A stretch of 64,000 nucleotides of DNA, from NCBI RefSeq assembly GCF_020510625.1, contig NZ_CP075191.1, positions 2,580,001 to 2,644,000 on the forward strand, read 5' to 3'. This document shows, one piece after another, positions 9,581 through 23,606 of this stretch (within the stretch, counting starts at the first letter, position 1; each line of letters starts with the position of its first letter). Source of the DNA: Ferribacterium limneticum (lineage in GTDB: Bacteria > Pseudomonadota > Gammaproteobacteria > Burkholderiales > Rhodocyclaceae). A program made the translations under genes and the position numbers. The notes under the pieces are model-generated. The model saw nothing but the letters and a program-made list of their open reading frames with translations, was not told the DNA's origin and searched no databases.

Positions 9581-9832
9581 CTAGTCCTCGTCCACACCAA
9601 ATTCGGCATCGATCTTTCGCATCTGCCGGTTGTACCACCAGATGATCAGCAGAAAGATCACCAGAGAACCTTGTGCCGCCATGTAGAAGCCGAGCGGAAA
9701 ACCGAGGAACCGGACCGCATTGACTTCACGGGCGAACCAGGTGACGCCGAAGGTCAGGCAAAGCCAGCAAAAAAGCAGGAAAAAGGTCAGTCGCCGAGTC
9801 CGGCGCCAGTAGCTATTGGCTTTTTCCGTCAT
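9581..9832 (-). CDS. DUF4212 family small subunit of sodium/solute symporter
   Basis: 83 residues, two membrane helices (about 15-32 and 42-65), ending RKIDAEFGVDED. The family (DUF4212, TIGR03647) occurs next to VC_2705-type sodium/solute symporters as a small partner. Its start overlaps the stop of the symporter gene by four bases... in gene order it follows 9829, so the two are translationally coupled. Role: likely subunit or stabiliser of the carboxylate transporter in the inner membrane. Confidence 0.85.
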   Translation of the reverse strand: MTEKANSYWRRTRRLTFFLLFCWLCLTFGVTWFAREVNAVRFLGFPLGFYMAAQGSLVIFLLIIWWYNRQMRKIDAEFGVDED

Positions 9833-11865
9833 GATGAAGTGTCATTGCGAAAGCGGATGGCTTTCAGGAAATTAAGCGCTCCGGGCTCGGGTTTGGTCAC
9901 CAGGCTGACCAGAATAATCGTTGCAAAGCCAGCCAGAACACCAAAGAAGCCGCTGGAAGTCGCCTGAATATGGAACCAGGGATCCATGTGAAGGCCGCTG
10001 ATACCCAGCCAGGGAATGCTGTCGAATTCGACACGCACAATGTAATAGATCGATATCAGCACTCCGACAATCATGCCGGCCAGCGCCCCCTGACGTGTCG
10101 CCCGCTCCCAGAAAATACCAAGCACCAGCGCTGGGAAGAAGGCGGAACCGGCTATCGAGAAGGCCCAAGCGACCATGGACAGGATTGTTCCCGGCTTTTG
10201 GGCAGCGACGGTGGCTGCCAGCACGGCAACGACCAGCAACATCGACTTGGAAATGACCAGCCTGAACTGCGTCGAAGCATCAGGACGGAAGATACGGTAA
10301 TAGACGTCGTGGGACAGCGCGCTGGTGATCGTCAGCAACAAGCCATCAGCCGTAGACAGCGCGGCAGCCAAGCCGCCGGCCGCAACCAACCCGGAAACGA
10401 CGTAGGGCATGCCGGCGATTTCTGGCGTTGCCAGCACGATCACGTCCGGATTCAGCGAAAGTTCGGCCAACTGGAGAATGCCGTCAGCGTTGATATCTTC
10501 GATGCTGACCAGCCCGATCTTGGCCCATGCCGCCACCCAACCAGGCAACTTGGCGATGGGTATTTCGGCAAGGTGGGAGAGGACCTCGTATTTGGCAAAT
10601 ACGGCGTAAGCCGGTGCCGTGATATAGAGCAAAAGAATAAACAGCAGCGACCAGAATACGGATTCCCGCGCTTCGCGAACGGATGGCGTCGTGTAATAAC
10701 GCGTCAAAACGTGCGGCAAGGCGGCGGTGCCGACGGTCAGGCAAAAAATCAGGGCGAGAAAATTGATCCGCTGGATATCCTGCTCCTCGACCGTCTCGCC
10801 AGGAAACGCTTCACCATGATGAATCGGCGGCTTGCTGCGATCGGCCGCCGAAAACATGGCGTTTTCCCAACGAATCTTCGCCTGATCGGGATCGTGCGGC
10901 AAATCACGACGTTGCCGTTCGAGCGCGACAATATCCTTCATCTGCGCATCGCTGGCCTTGAGTTGATTGATCTGGGTCGACAGCTGTTCCCGTTCGTGGG
11001 TCAGGGAGTGCGGCAGTTGCATGATCTTCTGGGCGTACAGATCGGCCCGATCCTTGAACAACTGGCGCACCTCAACCTCGGCCGGCGTATCGAACAAACG
11101 ATTTTCGAGTGCCGTCACCTGCTGCAGCACCTGCCCATAGACCAGTTGCGGGATCGGATTGCCGGTCACGTTGTAGGACAGGATAGCCACCGGCGTCACG
11201 TAGGCAACGATCAGGATCAGGTATTGGGCCACCTGCGTCCAGGTAACAGCCTTCATGCCGCCAAGAAAGGAGCAAACCAGAATGCCGGCCAGGCCGACAA
11301 AGACACCGATTTCGAACTGCAGACTGACGAACCGACTGGTGATGACGCCGACGCCATAGATCTGGGCCACCACATAAACGAAGGAAGCGAGGATGGCTGC
11401 GCCAACGGCCACCAGACGAATGGCATTGCCGCCGTAACGCGCCCCCAGAAAATCGGGAATGGTGTACTGGCCAAAACGCCGCAGATAAGGCGCCAGCAAC
11501 AGAGCCACCAACACGAAGCCGCCGGTCCAGCCGATCACATAGGCCAGGCCCTGAAACCCCGAGAGATAGAGTGTTCCCGCCATGCCGATGAACGAGGCCG
11601 CACTCATCCAGTCGGCGCCGGTCGCCATGCCGTTGAAGAAGGCGGGAACCTTTCTCCCGGCGACGTAATACTCGGAAACGTCGGACGTTCGGCTGACGAT
11701 CCCGATCAGGGCATACATCGAAATCGTGAAGAACAGGAAGGAATAGCCGATCCAGCGCGGCGGCATGCCGTGCTGTTCAAGGATCGCCAGCGCACCGATG
11801 AACGCCAGGAAGCAGCCTGTGTAATACAGGTAATAGCGCTGCAGCCTGGTCAGCGAACTCAACAT
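9829..11865 (-). CDS. Sodium/solute symporter, VC_2705-like (acetate/carboxylate type), with inserted loop and EF-hand
   Basis: 678 residues, longer than ordinary SSF permeases (about 550). Membrane helices occupy residues ~10-235 and again ~365-675, with the SSF stretch EYYVAGRKVPAFFNGMATGADWMSA. Between them, about residues 240-360 form a charged, partly coiled soluble insertion (ALENRLFDTPAEVEVRQLF and on). Residues 457-468 read DINADGILQLAE, an exact EF-hand calcium loop (D-x-N-x-D-G-x-L-x-x-x-E). Known family members are paired with DUF4212 proteins and associated with acetate uptake; the substrate here is inferred from linkage to acs. Operon with 9581 (overlap) and 11875 (9 bp). Confidence 0.85.
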   Translation of the reverse strand: MLSSLTRLQRYYLYYTGCFLAFIGALAILEQHGMPPRWIGYSFLFFTISMYALIGIVSRTSDVSEYYVAGRKVPAFFNGMATGADWMSAASFIGMAGTLYLSGFQGLAYVIGWTGGFVLVALLLAPYLRRFGQYTIPDFLGARYGGNAIRLVAVGAAILASFVYVVAQIYGVGVITSRFVSLQFEIGVFVGLAGILVCSFLGGMKAVTWTQVAQYLILIVAYVTPVAILSYNVTGNPIPQLVYGQVLQQVTALENRLFDTPAEVEVRQLFKDRADLYAQKIMQLPHSLTHEREQLSTQINQLKASDAQMKDIVALERQRRDLPHDPDQAKIRWENAMFSAADRSKPPIHHGEAFPGETVEEQDIQRINFLALIFCLTVGTAALPHVLTRYYTTPSVREARESVFWSLLFILLLYITAPAYAVFAKYEVLSHLAEIPIAKLPGWVAAWAKIGLVSIEDINADGILQLAELSLNPDVIVLATPEIAGMPYVVSGLVAAGGLAAALSTADGLLLTITSALSHDVYYRIFRPDASTQFRLVISKSMLLVVAVLAATVAAQKPGTILSMVAWAFSIAGSAFFPALVLGIFWERATRQGALAGMIVGVLISIYYIVRVEFDSIPWLGISGLHMDPWFHIQATSSGFFGVLAGFATIILVSLVTKPEPGALNFLKAIRFRNDTSS

Positions 11866-11874
11866 CCGGCGATG

Positions 11875-12546
11875 CTAGTGGTTGCGCCGCAGGAAACTGC
11901 TCGCCCGCGACTCATCGACCAGATGCGTCGCCGTATCGATCTGCTTGCCTACGGCACGGACCAGCAACATCTGGAAGATGCGGCCGAGCAGCAGCGTATT
12001 GGCCATCGCATCGCGCCGACCGCTACCGGAATCCAGGCCAAAAACGTCGATCCAGTGGTCAAGCGGCATCACGGTATGCCCCTTTTCTTCGAACATCGAA
12101 GGCAGCAGCCAGGCCAGATCAACCCATTGCGGCTGGAAATCGACCCCCAGACGTTCCTTGAAGGCACGCTGCAGAAAGCCACCGACATAAGGCACGTGAT
12201 AGGTCACCAGCGGCGCCTTGGCCGCGAACAGCAGGAAGGCCGCCAGCTGCCGATCAACGGCAGCGCCCTCGCCGTCCAGCGTCGAGAAGTCAATGTAGAA
12301 GGTATCGTCCGGCTGGATGGCTCCTTGCCAGACGCTGCTGGCAGCGATGCCCAGCAGTTGGTCGCTCTCGGGTTGCAGGCCGCTGCTGACGATATCGACG
12401 ACGACATAGCGGGTATGAAAATGCAGATCGTCCAGCGGCGGCGTAGCACTGGCCCGCCAGCCCTCGAGCGAGGCGCGGACATCATCCGGCAGATGAGACG
12501 GTGCGCCACCCCGGAACAGGAATTTCTTGAGGCCGAGCATGGTCAT
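11875..12546 (-). CDS. DnaQ-fold exonuclease-like protein, probably inactive
   Basis: 223 residues with the layout of DEDD exonucleases, but the catalytic positions are changed: the usual DxExT is YVVVDIVSSGL (the Glu lost), the usual HNxxFD is TYHVPYVGGFLQR, and the last motif keeps Asp (GRRDAMANTLLLGRIF) without the expected His. It therefore resembles a nuclease fold kept for binding rather than cleavage. It overlaps the upstream DUF294 gene by four bases (12543-12546) and lies 9 bp before the symporter gene. A nucleotide- or partner-binding regulator is the most reasonable reading; this is inference. Confidence 0.7.
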   Translation of the reverse strand: MTMLGLKKFLFRGGAPSHLPDDVRASLEGWRASATPPLDDLHFHTRYVVVDIVSSGLQPESDQLLGIAASSVWQGAIQPDDTFYIDFSTLDGEGAAVDRQLAAFLLFAAKAPLVTYHVPYVGGFLQRAFKERLGVDFQPQWVDLAWLLPSMFEEKGHTVMPLDHWIDVFGLDSGSGRRDAMANTLLLGRIFQMLLVRAVGKQIDTATHLVDESRASSFLRRNH

Positions 12547-14513
12547 TGCACCTGATAGTCGAGTTTGAGGCGCGTCTGGATCTTGCGGGCCTGACGGAAG
12601 GATTCTTTCAGGATACGGCGATCCAGTTCATTCAAGGTATCCGGATCGATCAGGTTATCGCCCTGCGTTCCCGGCTCGCCTTCCAGATACTGATGCTGCA
12701 GGCGCAGGAGCTGGATGAAATTGAGCCCTTCGAGCACCGCGTTGATTTCATCGCTGCGGATCGACAGGCGCTGCGAGGCCAGGCGCAGGCGCTGGATCGA
12801 ATTGGTGTTGTGCACCCCGCTGGCCATCGCATAGATGCGGGCGACATCGACGAAAATGCGCGAACCGTATTTCTTGAGATCGATCTTGCCCGGATGGTCG
12901 GGTTCAAGATCGGTCAGGAAATCACGAATCTTGCCGAGTGGCGGTTCGACATCAAGCGCATTCTTCGCCATGGCGCGCAGGAACATCGGGTTGGCTGCCG
13001 TCTGGGCCAGCAGGTGGCGGCGCATGGCCTCGGCCAGTTCAGCCTTGCCGAACAAGGCGCGGAAATCGAAGAAGATGGTCGCATTGAGCAGCGCATCCGG
13101 CTGTGGCATGCGAATCCAGTTGGCAAACTGATCCTTCCACTCTTCAAGCGTCAGACACCATTGCGGATTGCTCGCCATGATGTTGCCCTTGCACAGCGGG
13201 AAGCCACAGCGATCAAGGTCGTTGTTGACGTCCAGCGCATAGGCCAGGAAACGCTGCTTGAGCGCATCGACCGAAGCGCCTTCCGGCGGGGCGAAGACAA
13301 TGCCGTTATCCTGGTCGGTACTGAAGGTCTGCTCGTCGCGACCTTCCGAGCCGAAGGCCAGCCAAGCCCACTCGATACCGTCGAAATTATGGTTTTCGAG
13401 GTTGAGCTGGATAACCCGGCGGGTCAGCGCATCGTTCAGCGCCGAAATGAATTGCGTCAATTGTTCGGCACCAACGCCTTGCGCCAGCATGTTGAAGGAC
13501 AGTTGTCGTACGTCGGCAGCCGCCTGTTGCAGCGCCTCGACATTGTGGGCGCCGTCGATGGCCTGACGAATCTGGCGCAGACCGACACGCTGCAACGAGA
13601 ACAGATCGCGCTCGGAAACGACACCAGTCAGCTTGCCTTCGGCATCGGTCACCAGCACGTGGCGAATGCCGTGCGTCGCCATGGCGAACATCGCATCGTA
13701 GGCCGTGGCGTGCTCTTCAATCATGAATGGATTCTGCGACATGGCCTGACCGATCGGCGTCGTCAGCGGCAGATCGGCCAGCACGACACGGTCGAGCAGG
13801 TCGGTACGCGTAAAGACGCCGACGGCCTTGCGATCTTCACCGGCAATAACCAGCGAACCGACACCGGCTTGCGACATCGTTTCGAGTGCCGTGCGCAGGG
13901 GCGTTTCCGGTGCGACGGTAATCGGCGAGCGGGAACCAATGCCGGCCAGCGGTGAATTCAACGTCTGCTGCTCGCTGGCGCGCTGGGCGAACTGGAGCTG
14001 GAGCTGGCGGCGTGACTGGTCGAGCAGGCTGGCAATGTACTTCGTGCAGAACAGGTTGAATTCCGGGCTCGACGACATCAGCACCAGGAAATCCTCGGCC
14101 GGCAACTGGTAGCAGAAGGTATCCTCAACCGCCGTATAGACGTTGGTCGACGGCCGCCCGGCCGTCACCGCGCCGATCGGGAAGCTTTCCCCGGCGCCAA
14201 GACTGAGAACGGAATACTCGGTCACGGTCACTTCGCCGGCCTGGCGCGCCTGCACCTTGCCGGACTCGATCAGGTAGAAGAAACGGACATTGCCGGAATC
14301 CGGTCCGATGATCTCGCTGCCGGCCGGGTAAAACGCGATCTGCGCCTTTTCGGCAAAATGTTGCAGCGCCCCCGGCTGCATCTTGTTGAACGGAGCGTGG
14401 TTACGCAAAAAAGCCTGCGTATTGCCCGCCATGCGGGTGCGGCCTTCCTGGCGCAGCGTCATTTCCACTTGGCCCACGGCCATCTCCTGCCCTGATTGTT
14501 GTTGCGTATTCAC
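12543..14513 (-). CDS. cNMP-binding / CBS / GlnD-like nucleotidyltransferase (DUF294) protein
   Basis: 656 residues. In order: a cyclic-nucleotide-binding-type barrel (about residues 40-165), a CBS pair (about 200-320, with GVGSLVIAGEDRKAVGVFTRTDLLDRVV), a DUF294 nucleotidyltransferase domain with WLAFGSEGRDEQTFSTDQDNG (about 395-415), and the DUF294 C-terminal helical domain ending in RKIQTRLKLDYQ. The GS...DxD pattern is that of polymerase-beta-type transferases such as GlnD. Protein or small-molecule nucleotidylation is expected but the target is unknown. It is followed by the exonuclease-like gene and symporter in one operon, so control of transport by nucleotides is likely. Confidence 0.85.
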   Translation of the reverse strand: MNTQQQSGQEMAVGQVEMTLRQEGRTRMAGNTQAFLRNHAPFNKMQPGALQHFAEKAQIAFYPAGSEIIGPDSGNVRFFYLIESGKVQARQAGEVTVTEYSVLSLGAGESFPIGAVTAGRPSTNVYTAVEDTFCYQLPAEDFLVLMSSSPEFNLFCTKYIASLLDQSRRQLQLQFAQRASEQQTLNSPLAGIGSRSPITVAPETPLRTALETMSQAGVGSLVIAGEDRKAVGVFTRTDLLDRVVLADLPLTTPIGQAMSQNPFMIEEHATAYDAMFAMATHGIRHVLVTDAEGKLTGVVSERDLFSLQRVGLRQIRQAIDGAHNVEALQQAAADVRQLSFNMLAQGVGAEQLTQFISALNDALTRRVIQLNLENHNFDGIEWAWLAFGSEGRDEQTFSTDQDNGIVFAPPEGASVDALKQRFLAYALDVNNDLDRCGFPLCKGNIMASNPQWCLTLEEWKDQFANWIRMPQPDALLNATIFFDFRALFGKAELAEAMRRHLLAQTAANPMFLRAMAKNALDVEPPLGKIRDFLTDLEPDHPGKIDLKKYGSRIFVDVARIYAMASGVHNTNSIQRLRLASQRLSIRSDEINAVLEGLNFIQLLRLQHQYLEGEPGTQGDNLIDPDTLNELDRRILKESFRQARKIQTRLKLDYQVQ

Positions 14514-14532: not shown

Positions 14533-15588
14533 TCAAAGTGAATAGTTTAACTTGAGACGCTGTTGCAGGCGGCGCGCCTGCTTGAGTGCCTCACGCAGAA
14601 TGGCCCGATCCATCTCATGCAGCGCAGCGGGTTTCAGGCCCCCACCCTCCGCTTCGCCCTTGGCCGAGGCATTCATCTGCTGCCCCAGCCGCAATCGCAA
14701 TATGTGTGAAAAAGCCGCGCTGAGCGCAGCAATTTCGGTCGCCTGCAAACCAATCGCTGCCCCGGCTTCAGTCAGGCGCTCACTGGTATTGACCCCCCTC
14801 GTCCCACTGGTCAGCGCAAAGATACGCGCCGCATCGACAAAGATCCGGCTACCGTATTTCTTGAGATCGACCGCCTGAGCTTCGTCAAGCACCAGTTCGC
14901 CGCGGAAATTGAGCGGCACTTCGGCCTGCAGCGCATTGGCCGCCATCAGGTGCTGAAACGATGGGGTGGCAACGGTCATCGACAGCAGCAAGGTACGCAG
15001 GCGCTCCCCCAATTCGAGTTGACCATACAGCGGCCGCAAATCGAAGAAGATGCTGGCATTGAGCAGCGCCACCGGGTCCGGCCGGCGCACCCAGTCGATG
15101 AACCGTCCTCGCCACTCATCCAGGGAAAGACACCACGCCGGATTACCCGCCATGATCTGGCCACTGCACAGCGCGAACCCGCAGGCGGCCAGTTGCCGAT
15201 TGACGTCCTGGGCAAACGGCAGGAACAGCTCACGCAAGGCAGCCGCCTCCTGATCGCTCGTCGCATTGAAGATCAGGCCGTTATCCTGGTCGGTGACAAA
15301 AGTCTGCTCATGCCGTCCCTCCGAGCCCAGCGCTAGCCAGCACCAGGCCACCGGCGGCAGGCGATGCCGTTGGGCCGTCAACGCGATGACTTTTTCGGTC
15401 AGCCGGTCATTGAAGGCTGAAATCAGGCGCGTCGCGACGCAGCCATCCAGTCCACCACTGATCGCATGCTGCTGAAATGCCCGCAAACGACCGGCCAAGG
15501 CCGGCGCCGCCTCGATATCGAGCAGCGCGTTCAGCGCCGCTGTCAGCTCAAGCTGCTCGGTGCAGGGCGAGAGGATGTCGGGAATCAC
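14533..15588 (-). CDS. Second DUF294 nucleotidyltransferase-like protein (no sensory domains)
   Basis: 351 residues, aligning with the C-terminal half of the neighbour at 12543-14513: WLALGSEGRHEQTFVTDQDNG, NPAWCLSLDEWRGRF, DLKKYGSRIFVDAARIFAL and a final RRLQQRLKLNYSL. It has the transferase and helical domains but not the cNMP and CBS domains. It looks like a tandem duplicate that lost, or never had, the sensor part. The transferase motif is intact. It starts 7 bp after the exonuclease-fusion gene and ends 19 bp before its larger paralogue. Confidence 0.82.
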   Translation of the reverse strand: MIPDILSPCTEQLELTAALNALLDIEAAPALAGRLRAFQQHAISGGLDGCVATRLISAFNDRLTEKVIALTAQRHRLPPVAWCWLALGSEGRHEQTFVTDQDNGLIFNATSDQEAAALRELFLPFAQDVNRQLAACGFALCSGQIMAGNPAWCLSLDEWRGRFIDWVRRPDPVALLNASIFFDLRPLYGQLELGERLRTLLLSMTVATPSFQHLMAANALQAEVPLNFRGELVLDEAQAVDLKKYGSRIFVDAARIFALTSGTRGVNTSERLTEAGAAIGLQATEIAALSAAFSHILRLRLGQQMNASAKGEAEGGGLKPAALHEMDRAILREALKQARRLQQRLKLNYSL

Positions 15589-15595
15589 ACCAGTC

Positions 15596-17767
15596 TCAGT
15601 ATTTCACCCGGGCGAAATAGGTCTTCTCGGCTGCTTCGAGGGCCTGGCGAACGGTGACGATGCCCTGATCCTCCAGCAGCTTGACTAGCTTCAGGAAAAC
15701 CTCGCCGGTCGCCAGCGCATCTTCGAGGGCGTTGTGCCGCTTGCCGATGGTGATGCCAAGCCGCTCCAAGATAACGTCGAGCTTGTGCGATTCCTGATTC
15801 GGATGGACAACGGCGGAAAGCAGCAAGGTATCGAGCACCGGCTGGGTGAAGCGAATATTGGTCCGGTCCTCCTTGAGTTGGAGGAAACGCATGTCGAAGG
15901 CCGCATTGTGGGCAATCAGCACGGTGTCTTCGCAGAACTCGTGGAAAGCCGGCAGCACGACATCGATGTTCGGCTGGCCGCGCACCATGTCCTCGGTAAT
16001 GCCGTGAATCGGGATCGACTCCGGCTTCAGCGGAATTTCGGGGTCGACGATCTGGTTGAAGGTTTCCTGCCGCAACAGGCGGTTATTGACGATGCGGGCG
16101 GCGCCGATCTGGATGATCTCGTCGCCGTTGGACGGTTCCAGCCCGGTCGTTTCGGTATCGAAGACGGTATAAGTGAGTTCGGACAGCTTGCGGTCGAGGT
16201 CGATCGATTTGTCTTCGAACTTGAAAAGGTCGAAGTCATAGTATTCCGGACGCCCCTTACCCCGGGTACGCTCTTCCTGATCCTGTTCGACTTCGGGCGT
16301 CGCCACCGGCAACACGAAGCGGAAGTAGGCACGATGCGCCGCCTTTTCGCGCTGATACCAGATCTCGCCACCGTGCCGATCGATCACATCCCGCAGGGTC
16401 AGTGGCGAGGTTTCGCTGCCGATCTGCATGGCCTCCATTTCCCACGTATAGAACGTTTCCGACGACATAGCCGGCCCGGCCCAGATCAGGTCGAGATAGG
16501 CCAGTTTGCCGGAGGAAGTCAGGCGGAAGCGCAATTCGCGTGGATCGTAGTGATCCTGCAGCTTCGAGGCGAGACAGACCAGCGCGAAGACGAGCGAAAA
16601 ACTGTCGGCCTTGATCCACAAGGCATCATCCATTTCTTCAGTCTTGCTCGGCAGTTTGAGCTTGTCATCGATACGGCGCTGGGCGGCAGCGATGATGTCG
16701 ATGCCGAGAATGTCTTCAAGCGGCCAGCGCGTCTTGATCGCATCGGAAAACTGGCTCATGGTCTGGTCGATGACCTGGCTGCGCTTGGCCACTTCGTCGT
16801 CGATCACGTGCAGAAAGCGCTCACGCAACTCGGCTTCCATGTCCGGATAATCGAGCAGATTGGCAACCGCTGCGCGGATGTTGCCAATCGAGGAACGGCT
16901 GCCCTGGGTCAGCGTGTGCAGCGCCTGATCCCGGCGTTCTTCTTCCTCGATGCTGCGGGTAATGTTTTCGACGGTCAGCACGTAGCCCGACATCGAGGCT
17001 TCAGTGGCCTCACCGGAGGTCGCCAGCACCGGCACCATCTGGATGCGCAACAACTGGCCACCGCGCGTTGTCGTGATGAAGTTCGAAATCGCCGTCTTGC
17101 CGGCAACCAAACGCTGGTGAATGACTTCGCGGGCATGCTCGATCTGCCCTTTTTCGAGAATCGAGAAAATCGAACGTCCCAGGCCGATCAGCGCGCCGCC
17201 CGCCACCGAGGTCGGGCCTTGCGACAGTGCCTTGAACTGCAGGCGAGCCCGGTTGTTGTAGAGCAGGATGCGACCATCGAGATTGCAGACGACAACGGCC
17301 TGGGCCAGTTCCGACATCAGCGCCGCCAGCCGGTTTTTCTCTTCCTCGACGGAGGCCTTGGCCGTGGCTATCTGCGCATCGACATCGTCCATCAGGGCAT
17401 CGCGCTGTTGGGCAAGATCGTTTGCCGCCTGCGCCAGTTGCATCACTTCCGGCGGACCTTCGATCGTCACCCGGAAATTGCGGTTGGCCCCCAGCATCAG
17501 GCGCAGGGTCTCCGCCATGCGCAGCAAACCCTCGACGTATTGCTTGAACAGCTTGTGCAGAACCAGCACGCCAATGACAAAACCAAACAGCGTCATCATG
17601 GTTCCAACCGGCAGTCGCGACAGCAACAGCCCGGTCAGCATGCTGCGCTCGGCTTCCTTCATGTCCAGCCAGACCAGCAAGGAAGTCACGACAAACGGAC
17701 CGGTCATCAGCAGACCGAGAACAACCACGGCAATGATTAAACGATGTTTGGCCTTCATGGCACGCAT
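15596..17767 (-). CDS. Membrane histidine-kinase-like protein fused to DnaQ-type 3'-5' exonuclease
   Basis: 723 residues. Two membrane helices (about 9-33 and 52-72), a coiled linker, a PAS-like domain (about 150-270), a DHp-like helix pair whose expected histidine is missing (TLTQGSRSSIGNIRAAVANL), and an ATPase-like domain without clear N and G boxes. The C-terminal ~190 residues are an intact DEDDh exonuclease: VFDTETTGLEP, IAHNAAFDMRFLQ, KRHNALEDALAT. So a dead kinase scaffold carries a probably live nuclease at the membrane. It lies between the receiver gene (17827) and the DUF294 genes. Target nucleic acid or nucleotide is unknown. Start at 17767; ATG 17758 is also possible. Confidence 0.85.
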   Translation of the reverse strand: MRAMKAKHRLIIAVVVLGLLMTGPFVVTSLLVWLDMKEAERSMLTGLLLSRLPVGTMMTLFGFVIGVLVLHKLFKQYVEGLLRMAETLRLMLGANRNFRVTIEGPPEVMQLAQAANDLAQQRDALMDDVDAQIATAKASVEEEKNRLAALMSELAQAVVVCNLDGRILLYNNRARLQFKALSQGPTSVAGGALIGLGRSIFSILEKGQIEHAREVIHQRLVAGKTAISNFITTTRGGQLLRIQMVPVLATSGEATEASMSGYVLTVENITRSIEEEERRDQALHTLTQGSRSSIGNIRAAVANLLDYPDMEAELRERFLHVIDDEVAKRSQVIDQTMSQFSDAIKTRWPLEDILGIDIIAAAQRRIDDKLKLPSKTEEMDDALWIKADSFSLVFALVCLASKLQDHYDPRELRFRLTSSGKLAYLDLIWAGPAMSSETFYTWEMEAMQIGSETSPLTLRDVIDRHGGEIWYQREKAAHRAYFRFVLPVATPEVEQDQEERTRGKGRPEYYDFDLFKFEDKSIDLDRKLSELTYTVFDTETTGLEPSNGDEIIQIGAARIVNNRLLRQETFNQIVDPEIPLKPESIPIHGITEDMVRGQPNIDVVLPAFHEFCEDTVLIAHNAAFDMRFLQLKEDRTNIRFTQPVLDTLLLSAVVHPNQESHKLDVILERLGITIGKRHNALEDALATGEVFLKLVKLLEDQGIVTVRQALEAAEKTYFARVKY

Positions 17768-17826: not shown

Positions 17827-18198
17827 TCAGGCAACCCCGAGCATGGTCTTGACCTTGGCGACCAGATCCTTGGTCGAAAACGGCTTGGTGACGTAGGCAT
17901 CAGCCCCGATCGCCAGGCCTTTGGCCACCTCGGTATCGCGTCCCTTGGCGGTCAGCATGACAATCTGCAAACCCGTTCTGGCGGGGTCGGCGCGCAAGGC
18001 TTCGCAGACTTCAAAGCCGGATTTCTTCGGCATCATCACGTCGAGCAGAACGAGGTCGGGGCTGAAGCTCGCCACCTTGGCCAGAGCCTCTTCACCGTCG
18101 ACGGCGACGGCGACATCGAAGCCCTCTTTTTTCATCAAGAACTCAAGCGAGATGACGATATTCGGTTCGTCATCGACGATAAGGATTTTTTTGGTCAT
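17827..18198 (-). CDS. Receiver-only response regulator next to CrbS-like kinase
   Basis: 123 residues: MTKKILIVDDEPNIVISLEF, phosphoacceptor in LVLLDVMMPKKSGFE, conserved Thr/Lys in MLTAKG and YVTKPFS. All receiver residues are intact. There is no output domain, whereas CrbR, the partner of CrbS in Vibrio and Pseudomonas, has a LuxR-type DNA-binding domain. The start at 18198 has AGGGAG just upstream; the longer frame to 18297 would overlap the kinase gene deeply. It begins 17 bp after the kinase gene ends, and likely signals by protein contact. Confidence 0.9.
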   Translation of the reverse strand: MTKKILIVDDEPNIVISLEFLMKKEGFDVAVAVDGEEALAKVASFSPDLVLLDVMMPKKSGFEVCEALRADPARTGLQIVMLTAKGRDTEVAKGLAIGADAYVTKPFSTKDLVAKVKTMLGVA

Positions 18199-18214: not shown

Positions 18215-20926
18215 TTATTCCTCCGATGCCGGTAAGGGCACCGTGAAAATGAAATTCGCACCCTCGCCCGGGTGGCTTTCAACCCAAAGCTTACCACCGA
18301 AATATTCGATGATCTGCCGACTGATCGGCAAGCCCAGACCCGTGCCTTTAGGCTTGCCGGTCAGGGTGTTTCCACCCTGCCGGAATTTCTCGAAAATGAC
18401 ATCGCACTCTTCATGCGTCAAACCCGGTCCGTTGTCCTTGACCTCGACCCGAACCATCTGGCCATCGACGCCAACCTTGACCTGAACACAGCCAAGCTCC
18501 CCCGGCACGAATTTGACGGCATTCGACAACAGGTTGATCAAAACCTGCGTCAAGCGATCACGATCAGCCAGTACGATCGGCCCGCTGGCGGGAATATCGC
18601 CCTCCAGCAGCACGCCCTTCTCACGGAACAACTGGCCGACCGAATCCATGGTCTCGCGGGCAATCTCGCCGAGATCGACTTCGCCGGTCGTCCATTCCGC
18701 GCGCCCAGACTCCAGCTTGGCCATATCGAGAATCTGGTTGATCAGCCGAGTCAGCCGCTCGGCTTCACCGACGATGATGCCGAGAAATCGCGTCCGGTCA
18801 GCCAGCTCCAGCCGCGGGTCTTCATGCAGCATTTCGGACAAGGCCCGAATCGATGTCAGCGGCGTGCGCAGCTCATGCGTCACGGTCGAGATGAAATCGT
18901 CCTTCATGCGGTCCAGTTCGCGCAGACGTTCATTCGCCTCGCGCAGCTCACTCGTTGCCGCTTCGAGCTCACGCTGCTTGGCTTCCAGTTCGCGGCTGTG
19001 GGCCCGTACCTGGGTCGCCTCGTCGAGAATATCGAGCACCTCTTCCAGGCCGAGATCTTCTTCCTGCGCCACCGAAGCCACCATCACCCGGGCACTGGCC
19101 GAACCAATCGCCCCGGCCAGCTCGGCTTCGGCAAACTGCACGAACTGCGCGTCGACAGGCAGGCTGCGCCAATCAGCCAGCCCCCTGCCCTGGGCATAGA
19201 GGCTCAATTGCTGGTGCGCCCGCGACGCCCCCAAAAATCGTTCAAGCAGGCCGACCAGGGCGTCCAGCGAAGCTTTGCCACGCCACAGCCTGGCCTCGGC
19301 CTTGCGTGGATCAAAGCGAAAGACATCGACGAAACGTTCTGCCTGGCTAGCCTCCACGGCATCCGGCGTCGAGTTCAGCGATACCGCCACATAAGCACCA
19401 ATATTGGCCAGCATGCTCCACCACAGGCAATGCGATATTTCGTCCAGTCCGCCCAGGCCAAACAAGGCCTGCGCCTTCAGCCAGCCGATGCCGAACAGGC
19501 CATGCTCGACAAAGCCGCTCGCCATCCAGCCGGACTTGGCAAACGACGGCAGCAACAAGGTGTAAAGCCAGATCGCAAAGCCGGCTGATAACCCGGCCAC
19601 GGCGCCGGCCCGCGTGCCCTGCTTCCAGTACATGCCACCGAACATGGCCGGGGCAAACTGGGCAACCGCCGTAAATGAAATCAGACCGATACCAACCAGC
19701 GCATAGGCTTCGCCAGCCGCCCGGAAATAGATATAGCCAAGGAGCAGGATCAACGCGATGGCGACGCGCCGGATGCCAATCAACAAGCCGGAAAGATCCT
19801 GTCGTTTTTCTGCCTGCAACCAGGGCGAGCGCAACAGCCAGGGCATGACCAGATCGTTGCAGACCATGGTCGACAGGGCGATGGTTTCAACGATCACCAT
19901 GCCGGTCGCCGCCGACAGGCCACCAATGAAAGCGAGCAGCGCCAGCGCCTCGGCGCCACGCGCCAGAGGCAGCGTCAACACGAAGGTATCCGGATTGAAT
20001 CCCTGCCCGCCAAAATGCAGCAGGCCACCGAGCGCCAGCGGCAGCACGAAGATATTGATCAGCAGCAGATAAAGCGGAAAGAGCCAGACAGCGCGCTTGA
20101 GGTGGGACTCATCGACGTTTTCAACCACAATGATCTGGAACTGGCGTGGCAAGAAAATGATCGCCAGGCCGGAGAGCACGATCAGCGCAGTCCACGTTCC
20201 GGCCCGACTCGAATCCAGTTGCAGGAGACGGCCCAGCTCCGGACTCGCCGCTGCCCGTTGGAACAGATCGCCCAGTCCGCCAAACATGCCATAAGTCACA
20301 AACAGGCCGACCGCCATGAAGGCGATGAGTTTGACCACCGACTCGAAAGCCACGGCGGCTACCATGCCCTCGTGCCGCTCCGTCGCATCGAGATGGCGTG
20401 TTCCGAACAGGATGGAGAAAAGTGCGAGAACGGCGGCAATCAGAAACGTTGAATCCAGCCCCCAGAACTGCACGGAACTGCCGGAGTGCGCCAGCAGGAC
20501 ATCAAGACTGGCCGCCATCGCCTTCAATTGCAGCGCAATGTAAGGCACCACACCAATGACTGCGATGACCGTAACCATGCCGGCCAGCAACTGGCTCTTG
20601 CCGTAGCGCGAGGCGATGAAGTCGGCAATCGAGGTAATGCGCTGCGCCTTGCTGATGCGGATCATCTTGATGATGACGCCGACGCACAGCAGCATCAGGG
20701 TCGGGCCGAGATAGATGGTCAGGAAGGAGAGCCCGCCCGAGGTTGCCCGTCCGACACTGCCGTAGAAAGTCCAGGAAGTGCAATAAACGGCCAGCGACAG
20801 CGCGTAGACATTGGCGGAAATAATCGACTTGCCGGCATCGGCCCGCGCGTCGCCAAAACGCGCCACACCGAACAACAGGCCAAGATAGGCCGCCGCCAGC
20901 AGGGCGATGAACCATCCGGACAGCAT
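18215..20926 (-). CDS. CrbS-like sensor: SSF transporter fused to histidine kinase
   Basis: 903 residues. Residues 1 to ~500 form about 13 helices of a sodium/solute symporter fold (ANVYALSLAVYCTSWTFYGS near the start). A linker of about 130 residues and a coiled coil follow (SRELEAKQRELEAATSELRE), then HisKA with DDFISTVTHELRTPLTSIRA (about 675) and a complete HATPase (NLLSNAVKF, DNGPGL, GTGLGLPISRQIIEYFGG). CrbS proteins of this type control acs and acetate use; linkage to acs here supports the same role. Its ATG directly follows the stop TAA of the small membrane gene upstream (20927), so translation is coupled. Confidence 0.88.
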   Translation of the reverse strand: MLSGWFIALLAAAYLGLLFGVARFGDARADAGKSIISANVYALSLAVYCTSWTFYGSVGRATSGGLSFLTIYLGPTLMLLCVGVIIKMIRISKAQRITSIADFIASRYGKSQLLAGMVTVIAVIGVVPYIALQLKAMAASLDVLLAHSGSSVQFWGLDSTFLIAAVLALFSILFGTRHLDATERHEGMVAAVAFESVVKLIAFMAVGLFVTYGMFGGLGDLFQRAAASPELGRLLQLDSSRAGTWTALIVLSGLAIIFLPRQFQIIVVENVDESHLKRAVWLFPLYLLLINIFVLPLALGGLLHFGGQGFNPDTFVLTLPLARGAEALALLAFIGGLSAATGMVIVETIALSTMVCNDLVMPWLLRSPWLQAEKRQDLSGLLIGIRRVAIALILLLGYIYFRAAGEAYALVGIGLISFTAVAQFAPAMFGGMYWKQGTRAGAVAGLSAGFAIWLYTLLLPSFAKSGWMASGFVEHGLFGIGWLKAQALFGLGGLDEISHCLWWSMLANIGAYVAVSLNSTPDAVEASQAERFVDVFRFDPRKAEARLWRGKASLDALVGLLERFLGASRAHQQLSLYAQGRGLADWRSLPVDAQFVQFAEAELAGAIGSASARVMVASVAQEEDLGLEEVLDILDEATQVRAHSRELEAKQRELEAATSELREANERLRELDRMKDDFISTVTHELRTPLTSIRALSEMLHEDPRLELADRTRFLGIIVGEAERLTRLINQILDMAKLESGRAEWTTGEVDLGEIARETMDSVGQLFREKGVLLEGDIPASGPIVLADRDRLTQVLINLLSNAVKFVPGELGCVQVKVGVDGQMVRVEVKDNGPGLTHEECDVIFEKFRQGGNTLTGKPKGTGLGLPISRQIIEYFGGKLWVESHPGEGANFIFTVPLPASEE

Positions 20927-21369: not shown

Positions 21370-23334
<1,965 letters not shown>

Positions 23335-23606
23335 ATTCTTCTCCTCTGCGGTACTTCGCAATTTATGTTGAAACAACCGATTGGATCTCGGGCTTGACCC
23401 CGGGACTGTGTAAAGCCGCGCAAGCTGGAGAACACTTCAATCCCCTCGCCAGCGTTGATGCGGCATTAGACGTCGATATTCTTACAAAGGCCTTACGAAA
23501 TCACGCTGCGCCGCAGCAATTCGGTAACATTTCATGCCAATGACTACCCGCCCGCGGCTCGGCAATTTGGCGTGGTAAACTTCTGGTCCCCCAACCCCAC
23601 CCATAG

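What the first reader, a model, noticed from the sequence alone, without database searches (positions are those of the whole stretch)
15596..17767. Dead histidine-kinase scaffold fused to an intact 3'-5' exonuclease in the membrane
The DHp-like helix lacks the phospho-accepting His (TLTQGSRSSIGNI) and the ATPase lacks clear N/G boxes, while all DEDDh residues of the nuclease (DTETTGL, HNAAFD, HNALEDA) are present. A membrane PAS protein with nuclease output is an unusual signal-transduction design.
Basis: partly seen in the sequence, partly recalled or inferred. Interest (0 to 1): 0.72.

Follow-up and report, generated by a model that had tools for sequence, protein, structure and literature searches.

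The report
Dead sensor kinase joined to exonuclease
A membrane protein found in many Pseudomonadota carries a histidine-kinase core that can no longer act as a kinase, fused to an apparently working DNA/RNA-trimming enzyme, and its gene usually sits beside a working sensor kinase and a free phospho-receiver, which suggests a two-component signalling circuit that ends in a nuclease rather than in gene regulation.

Summary
The ORF 15596-17767(-) encodes 723 aa: two TM helices, coiled coil, PAS, a histidine-kinase-like DHp-CA core, and a DEDDh exonuclease. The core has the fold of DHp-CA kinases, but the phospho-His is absent in 107 of 107 aligned relatives, and the N, G1 and G2 boxes are gone. 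The nuclease residues are intact in 106 of 108. The design is not an oddity of this genome: it occurs in beta-, gamma- and alphaproteobacteria, usually in a cassette of SLC5/CrbS-like histidine kinase, receiver-only response regulator (RR), this fusion, and DUF294 nucleotidyltransferase, near actP/acs. The core resembles the neighbouring kinase more than any of about 70 others in the genome. Known RR-contact positions of DHp helix 1 are selectively conserved (p=0.0003; control in active neighbours p=0.32). Best reading: a DivL-like repurposed kinase that docks the phosphorylated receiver and gates a membrane nuclease within acetate/pyruvate uptake control. Anatomy is shown; docking is inferred; gating and substrate are unknown. 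Public records call it only 'exonuclease domain-containing protein', and I found no paper describing it. In Pseudomonas, a solo exonuclease beside CBS-DUF294, under the CrbS-type system, is needed for normal growth on pyruvate (PMC9927547).

The parts
15596..17767 (-). Fusion protein, 723 aa: TM - coiled coil - PAS - dead DHp-CA - DEDDh exonuclease
   Evidence: ORF and translation; same architecture in relatives
17543..17746 (-). Two transmembrane helices (residues about 8-35 and 47-75) with a short loop
   Evidence: hydropathy, helices in the model
16964..17317 (-). PAS-like domain (residues 151-268)
   Evidence: PAS_4 match E 0.003, below the curated cut-off
16730..16963 (-). Dead DHp-like helical hairpin (residues 269-346); Gln288 at the phospho-His position; Arg291 (H+3) kept
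   Evidence: profile alignment, conservation, model and fold match
16298..16729 (-). Dead CA-like (ATPase fold) domain (residues 347-490) without N, G1 and G2 boxes
   Evidence: CA part superposes on PrrB ATP-binding domain, Z 16.9, rmsd 2.3 A, 134 residues
15599..16186 (-). DEDDh exonuclease domain (residues 528-723), D537 E539 D625 H678 D683
   Evidence: RNase_T E 6e-35; residues intact in 106 of 108
17827..18198 (-). Receiver-only response regulator, 123 aa (ATG at 18198)
   Evidence: Response_reg E 4e-29, no output domain; single-domain in all relatives
18215..20926 (-). SLC5-type sensor histidine kinase (CrbS-like) with intact HisKA and HATPase_c
   Evidence: conserved next to the fusion
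14533..15588 (-). DUF294 nucleotidyltransferase-like protein, starts 7 bases after the fusion
   Evidence: PF03445 E 2e-44, PF10335 E 6e-34
12543..14513 (-). cNMP-CBS-DUF294 nucleotidyltransferase-like protein
   Evidence: PF03445 E 1e-47, CBS E 4e-24
11875..12546 (-). DnaQ-like protein with degenerate catalytic residues
   Evidence: weak DnaQ-family match, alignment
9829..11865 (-). ActP-type sodium:solute symporter
   Evidence: SSF E 9e-63
21370..23376 (-). acs-like acetyl-CoA synthetase, separated from the kinase gene by terminator-like stems
   Evidence: ORF translation, homologues in syntenic loci, stems; named by similarity, no family search run on it

Best explanation
The protein is a repurposed histidine kinase that works like DivL. 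The neighbouring SLC5-type kinase (intact) senses a monocarboxylate such as acetate or pyruvate and phosphorylates the receiver-only response regulator encoded between the two genes. The phosphorylated receiver docks on the retained face of the dead DHp helices of this membrane protein instead of on DNA, and this docking, with the PAS domain as a second input, opens or closes the attached DEDDh exonuclease. The nuclease then acts locally at the membrane on a nucleotide substrate that controls uptake or use of the acid, together with the DUF294 proteins. Shown here: domain anatomy, loss of kinase residues, intact nuclease residues, conserved cassette, selection on every domain, selective conservation of the docking face. 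Inferred: receiver docking and direction of information flow. Unknown: sign of the regulation and the substrate.
For: DHp-CA fold: the top 50 Foldseek rows are all histidine kinases or kinase-core proteins, including DivL 4q20 (E 1e-9) and HK853-RR468 complexes (Z 13-17). Profile match to the neighbouring kinase, 99.6% probability. In this genome the pseudo-kinase profile finds the neighbour first (E 2e-10), the next of about 70 HisKA kinases only at 6e-4. His absent in 107/107, while DHp alpha-1 positions known to touch receivers (H+3, 7, 8, 11, 12, 15, from PMC4211667 and the HK853 rewiring entries named) are selectively conserved (mean 2.61 vs 1.56 bits, permutation p=0.0003); no such bias in the active neighbouring kinases (3.51 vs 3.36, p=0.32). 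The H+3 Arg, whose DivL counterpart R553 is needed for DivK binding, is kept in 53 of 55 dereplicated sequences. Cassette kinase-receiver-fusion recurs in beta-, gamma- and alphaproteobacteria; receivers are all single-domain. Loci with the pseudo-kinase part: 38 with and 13 without an adjacent receiver; loci lacking it: 1 with, 5 without (Fisher p=0.01, not corrected for relatedness). Nuclease intact in 106/108. A solo exonuclease (PP_0353) under the homologous MxtR/ErdR system is needed for normal growth on pyruvate (PMC9927547).
Against: No binding or activity data. In L164 the pseudo-kinase part is deleted although kinase and receiver remain, so it is not always needed. 13 loci with the pseudo-kinase lack an adjacent receiver (some lie at contig ends). 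H+7 and H+12 differ from the active kinase, so the docking face is similar but not identical. Conservation of alpha-1 could also reflect dimer packing. Only alpha-1 was tested, with contact positions taken from other proteins.
Confidence: 0.5

Rival explanations
1. The dead kinase core is only a dimerisation and signal-transmission spacer. The PAS domain (and membrane part) sense the signal and pass it through the coiled DHp helices to the nuclease; the receiver next door has another target.
For: PAS and helices are conserved; L163/L164 work with PAS joined straight to the nuclease, so PAS-to-nuclease signalling without the core must be possible; 13 loci have the core but no adjacent receiver.
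Against: Receiver-contact positions are selectively conserved; the CA-like domain, useless for a mere spacer, is under purifying selection as strong as PAS; core and receiver tend to co-occur; the core is closest to the kinase that presumably uses the same receiver.
Confidence: 0.25
2. The core acts on the active SLC5 kinase rather than on the receiver: it forms heterodimers with it or titrates its receiver, so the fusion is a regulator of the two-component system, and the nuclease is a separate activity tethered to it.
For: The core's DHp resembles that of the neighbouring kinase best and the genes are adjacent; kinase heterodimers and receiver sinks are known principles (general knowledge).
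Against: The nuclease is intact in 106 of 108, which a pure titration role does not explain; the receiver would still have no output of its own.
Confidence: 0.12
3. The nuclease domain is the eraser of a nucleotide mark or signal made by the neighbouring DUF294 nucleotidyltransferases; the kinase-like part sets its activity.
For: DUF294 was found in the stretch in 39 of 57 loci with the exonuclease, also where the kinase core is absent (L190-L193); PP_0353/PP_0354 are one operon in Pseudomonas putida (PMC9927547). Compatible with the best explanation as its enzymatic end.
Against: 18 of 57 stretches show no DUF294 gene (some truncated); PP_0353 but not PP_0354 deletion affects pyruvate growth, so the two are not simply a pair; no activity of either is known.
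Confidence: 0.13

Closest known systems
DivL of Caulobacter crescentus (PMC4211667)
   Same: PAS protein with a DHp-CA core lacking the phospho-His; partner is a single-domain receiver (DivK); reads the phosphorylated receiver through the DHp docking face; H+3 Arg kept.
   Different: DivL keeps N, G1, F and G2 boxes and has no attached nuclease; here these boxes are lost, the H+0 residue is mostly acidic (Gln here) rather than Tyr, and a nuclease follows. Not claimed as an orthologue.
CrbS/CrbR (MxtR/ErdR) acetate two-component system of Vibrio and Pseudomonas (PMC5715377, PMC8402216, PMC9927547)
   Same: SLC5-type sensor kinase; genes for acs, actP, a CBS-DUF294 protein and an RNase_T exonuclease are linked to it or controlled by it.
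   Different: CrbR/ErdR activates transcription directly; here the receiver encoded beside the kinase has no output domain, and the exonuclease is fused to membrane, PAS and dead-kinase parts.
PP_0353 / PP_0354 of Pseudomonas putida (putative exonuclease and CBS-domain protein, PMC9927547)
   Same: RNase_T exonuclease in one operon with a CBS-domain protein in the acetate/pyruvate regulon; loss of PP_0353 slows growth on pyruvate.
   Different: The paper reports only an RNase_T hit for PP_0353 and no membrane, PAS or kinase part; I did not have its sequence. A solo exonuclease beside a DUF294 gene in L141 scores only 51 bits against the fusion's nuclease profile, against about 280 for the fusion in the same locus.
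DnaQ/PolC-type DEDDh exonucleases
   Same: Complete DEDDh motif; PolC exonuclease is the nearest solved relative by sequence.
   Different: Fused C-terminally to a signalling module; no polymerase or helicase part.

Membership tests
DEDDh 3'-5' exonuclease (RNase_T, PF00929) | family profile match above cut-off | tested here: met
   121.6 bits, cut-off 24
DEDDh 3'-5' exonuclease (RNase_T, PF00929) | five catalytic residues D, E, D, H, D | tested here: met
   D537 E539 D625 H678 D683; 106 of 108 sequences
DEDDh 3'-5' exonuclease (RNase_T, PF00929) | metal-dependent 3'-5' exonuclease activity | not testable with these tools
   needs a bench assay
Histidine kinase (HisKA + HATPase_c) | DHp-CA fold | tested here: met
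Histidine kinase (HisKA + HATPase_c) | phospho-accepting His in the H-box | tested here: not met
   Gln288 here; His in 0 of 107
Histidine kinase (HisKA + HATPase_c) | N, G1 and G2 nucleotide-binding boxes | tested here: not met
   N-box Asn residues become Cys398/Lys402, G1 Asp becomes Trp429, G2 not recognisable
DivL-type pseudo histidine kinase | phospho-His replaced, DHp-CA fold kept, PAS in front | tested here: met
   (PAS match is below the curated cut-off)
DivL-type pseudo histidine kinase | single-domain receiver as partner | tested here: inconclusive
   genomic adjacency in 38 of 51 loci with the core; no binding data
DivL-type pseudo histidine kinase | N, G1, F and G2 boxes retained as in DivL | tested here: not met
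   DivL description. So it is not filed as a DivL, only as working like one
CrbS/CrbR two-component system | SLC5-type sensor kinase with intact transmitter | tested here: met
   18215-20926: HisKA 4e-18, HATPase_c 8e-29. The SLC5 part did not reach Pfam SSF; it is named by similarity to symporters and layout, STAC domain not tested
CrbS/CrbR two-component system | response regulator that itself activates transcription (DNA-binding output) | tested here: not met
   the neighbouring regulator is receiver-only

The most novel reading that the evidence does not exclude
The DUF294 nucleotidyltransferases and the exonuclease are writer and eraser of the same nucleotide mark or small nucleotide signal (for example an NMP on a transporter or enzyme, or a short oligonucleotide messenger), and phosphorylation of the receiver sets the balance through the dead kinase. 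A two-component system would then end in a reversible nucleotidylation switch for acetate/pyruvate uptake, comparable in logic to GlnD but with an unrelated eraser.
Probability: 0.12. Interest if true: 0.85.

Novelty: new variant of a known kind. Interest (0 to 1): 0.64.

Why it matters
Two-component systems normally end in transcription, second-messenger turnover or motility. A conserved branch that ends in a nuclease, read out through a dead kinase, would add an output class and a further example, beside DivL, of a histidine kinase turned into a module that reads a receiver. The cassette is present in Paracoccus denitrificans PD1222 (PDEN_RS25395-25415), so it is testable in a well-known laboratory organism. 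It may also help explain why an exonuclease is needed for normal pyruvate growth in Pseudomonas putida.

Tried and rejected
Full-length structure prediction gave low confidence, including in the nuclease part (mean pLDDT 61.7, pTM 0.30), probably because only closely related sequences could be used; the core alone was good (81.1). Relative orientation of DHp and CA in that model is not trusted (whole-length rmsd mostly above 7-10 A, while CA alone fits at 2-3 A). Pfam finds no HisKA or HATPase_c in the window protein; 10 of 20 relatives give sub-threshold HisKA (best E 0.0026). A chance fusion or frameshift artefact was rejected: the same architecture is found in several classes of Pseudomonadota. 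A kinase with a shifted His was rejected: no His at H-1 to H+1 in 107 sequences. Literature searches for PAS/pseudokinase/exonuclease, DUF294/exonuclease, SLC5/STAC/exonuclease and single-domain regulator/nuclease found no description; subscription papers are mostly not held, so this is not proof of absence. One row of alignment A2 carries a typing slip of a few residues at its start (used); searches use clean sequences. Receiver-core covariation was not attempted because too few diverse pairs are available. The sigma-70 promoter scan found nothing.

Full report
What is in the sequence. The minus-strand ORF 15596-17767 encodes 723 residues. Two hydrophobic helices lie at about residues 8-35 and 47-75, followed by a long helix/coiled coil, a PAS-like domain (PAS_4 E 0.003, below the curated cut-off), a stretch with no Pfam match (269-490), a variable linker, and an RNase_T exonuclease domain (534-690, E 6e-35; nearest solved relative by sequence the PolC exonuclease, 2p1j, E 6e-31). 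The DEDDh residues D537, E539, D625, H678 and D683 are present.

Is the middle a histidine kinase? Yes by descent and fold, no by chemistry. A profile of 41 family members aligns end to end with a profile of the neighbouring kinases at 99.6% probability. In that alignment the phospho-His is Gln288, the N-box Asn residues are Cys398 and Lys402, the G1 Asp is Trp429 and the G2 stretch is not recognisable, while the terminal 'HGGEIW...FRFVLP' signature survives. A model of the core alone (mean pLDDT 81) matches histidine kinases in the PDB; its CA part superposes on the PrrB ATP-binding domain at Z 16.9, rmsd 2.3 A over 134 residues. DivL is among the matches in both lists. Over 107 aligned relatives no His occurs at H-1, H+0 or H+1. 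All domains are under purifying selection: median dN/dS 0.12 (nuclease), 0.15 (CA-like), 0.22 (DHp-like), against 0.37 in the linker. So the dead core is a maintained part and not debris.

Surroundings. Downstream on the same strand come a DUF294 protein (7 bases away), a cNMP-CBS-DUF294 protein, a DnaQ-like protein that has lost its catalytic residues, and an ActP-type symporter. Upstream come a receiver-only response regulator of 123 aa with intact phosphorylation residues (17827-18198) and an SLC5-type sensor kinase with intact HisKA and HATPase_c (18215-20926); acs lies beyond terminator-like stems. Paracoccus denitrificans PD1222 (an alphaproteobacterium) carries DUF294 protein, a small hypothetical gene, kinase, receiver (121 aa) and fusion in one row, with the last three genes overlapping. 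Its fusion reads TELTEASRASLANM in the H-box and has all DEDDh residues. Public annotation is 'exonuclease domain-containing protein' or 'DNA polymerase III subunit epsilon'. Frequency: 31 of 399 genomes of the order at E 1e-60 and 50 of 398 of the phylum at E 1e-45; these counts include short forms without the core.

How it most likely works. A receiver without an output domain must act by touching another protein. Three results point to the dead DHp as that partner. First, searching this genome with the pseudo-kinase profile, the neighbouring kinase is by far the best other match (E 2e-10; next 6e-4, among about 70 HisKA kinases), as expected if both bind the same receiver or the core arose from such a kinase. 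Second, the positions of DHp helix 1 known to contact receivers (H+3, H+7, H+11, H+12 and H+15 in DivL-DivK, PMC4211667; H+8, H+11 and H+15 in the HK853 rewiring entries listed) are more conserved than the rest of the helix in the family (2.61 vs 1.56 bits, p=0.0003), although the His, its following Glu and the Thr-Pro have decayed. In the active neighbouring kinases the same positions do not stand out (3.51 vs 3.36, p=0.32). The H+3 Arg is kept in 53 of 55 dereplicated sequences; its DivL equivalent R553 is needed for DivK binding. Third, core and receiver tend to occur together: 38 loci with both, 13 with core but no adjacent receiver, 1 with receiver but no core, 5 with neither (with L209 reassigned to 'core present' after reading its sequence; Fisher p=0.01, not corrected for relatedness, and some loci lie at contig ends). 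The short forms without core or adjacent receiver (L190-L193) are still membrane-anchored nucleases next to CBS-DUF294 and actP, so membrane nuclease plus DUF294 looks like the common element and core plus receiver plus SLC5 kinase like a control layer. That order of events is inference.

What the nuclease does is open. In Pseudomonas putida the putative exonuclease PP_0353, in an operon with the CBS-domain gene PP_0354 and controlled by the SLC5-type MxtR/ErdR system, is needed for normal growth on pyruvate but not acetate; its authors suggest mRNA degradation but leave the mechanism open (PMC9927547). The Pseudomonas fluorescens counterpart of the CBS protein is described as having a nucleotidyltransferase domain (PMC5715377). 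DUF294 lay within the fetched stretch in 39 of 57 loci, which makes an opposing writer/eraser pair conceivable; nothing here tests it.

Limits. Docking, gating and enzyme activity are not shown. L164 keeps kinase and receiver but has lost the core, so other wiring exists. L134/L135 have lost the nuclease residues, and the gene upstream of the L134 fusion is a degenerate receiver, so one genus seems to have dismantled the output. The literature library lacks most subscription papers.

Noticed in passing
11875-12546 (-): DnaQ-like 223-aa protein in the same operon with catalytic positions lost (DIV for DTE, HVPYVGG for HNAAFD); conserved as such in relatives (L069, L075, L089, L099, L103, L122): a pseudo-exonuclease encoded near an intact one.
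   Followed up: partly
L134 7270-9746 and L135 509-2737: One genus has a version of the fusion whose nuclease residues are also lost; in L134 the gene just upstream is a degenerate receiver that has lost its acidic pair.
   Followed up: partly
L164 3234-4910 and L163 7636-9324: About 560-aa versions in which PAS joins the nuclease directly, with the dead kinase core deleted; L164 still has the SLC5 kinase and receiver, while a species of the same genus (L161) has the core.
   Followed up: partly
L190, L191, L192, L193: Short membrane-anchored exonucleases (474-512 aa open frames, no kinase core) next to CBS-DUF294 and actP, three of the four also near acs, with no receiver or SLC5 kinase nearby.
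   Followed up: partly
15596-17767 (-), residues about 506-515, and relatives: A motif YDFDLF (YDFxL) precedes the nuclease in most members read, including those lacking the kinase core; its role is unknown.
   Followed up: no
14533-15588 and 12543-14513 (-): Two DUF294 nucleotidyltransferase-like proteins in tandem, one without the cNMP/CBS part; in most more distant loci only one DUF294 gene is seen.
   Followed up: no
L131/L144 and L132/L143: Two genomes carry two copies of the fusion: one beside the SLC5 kinase and receiver, one beside only an actP-like gene.
   Followed up: no
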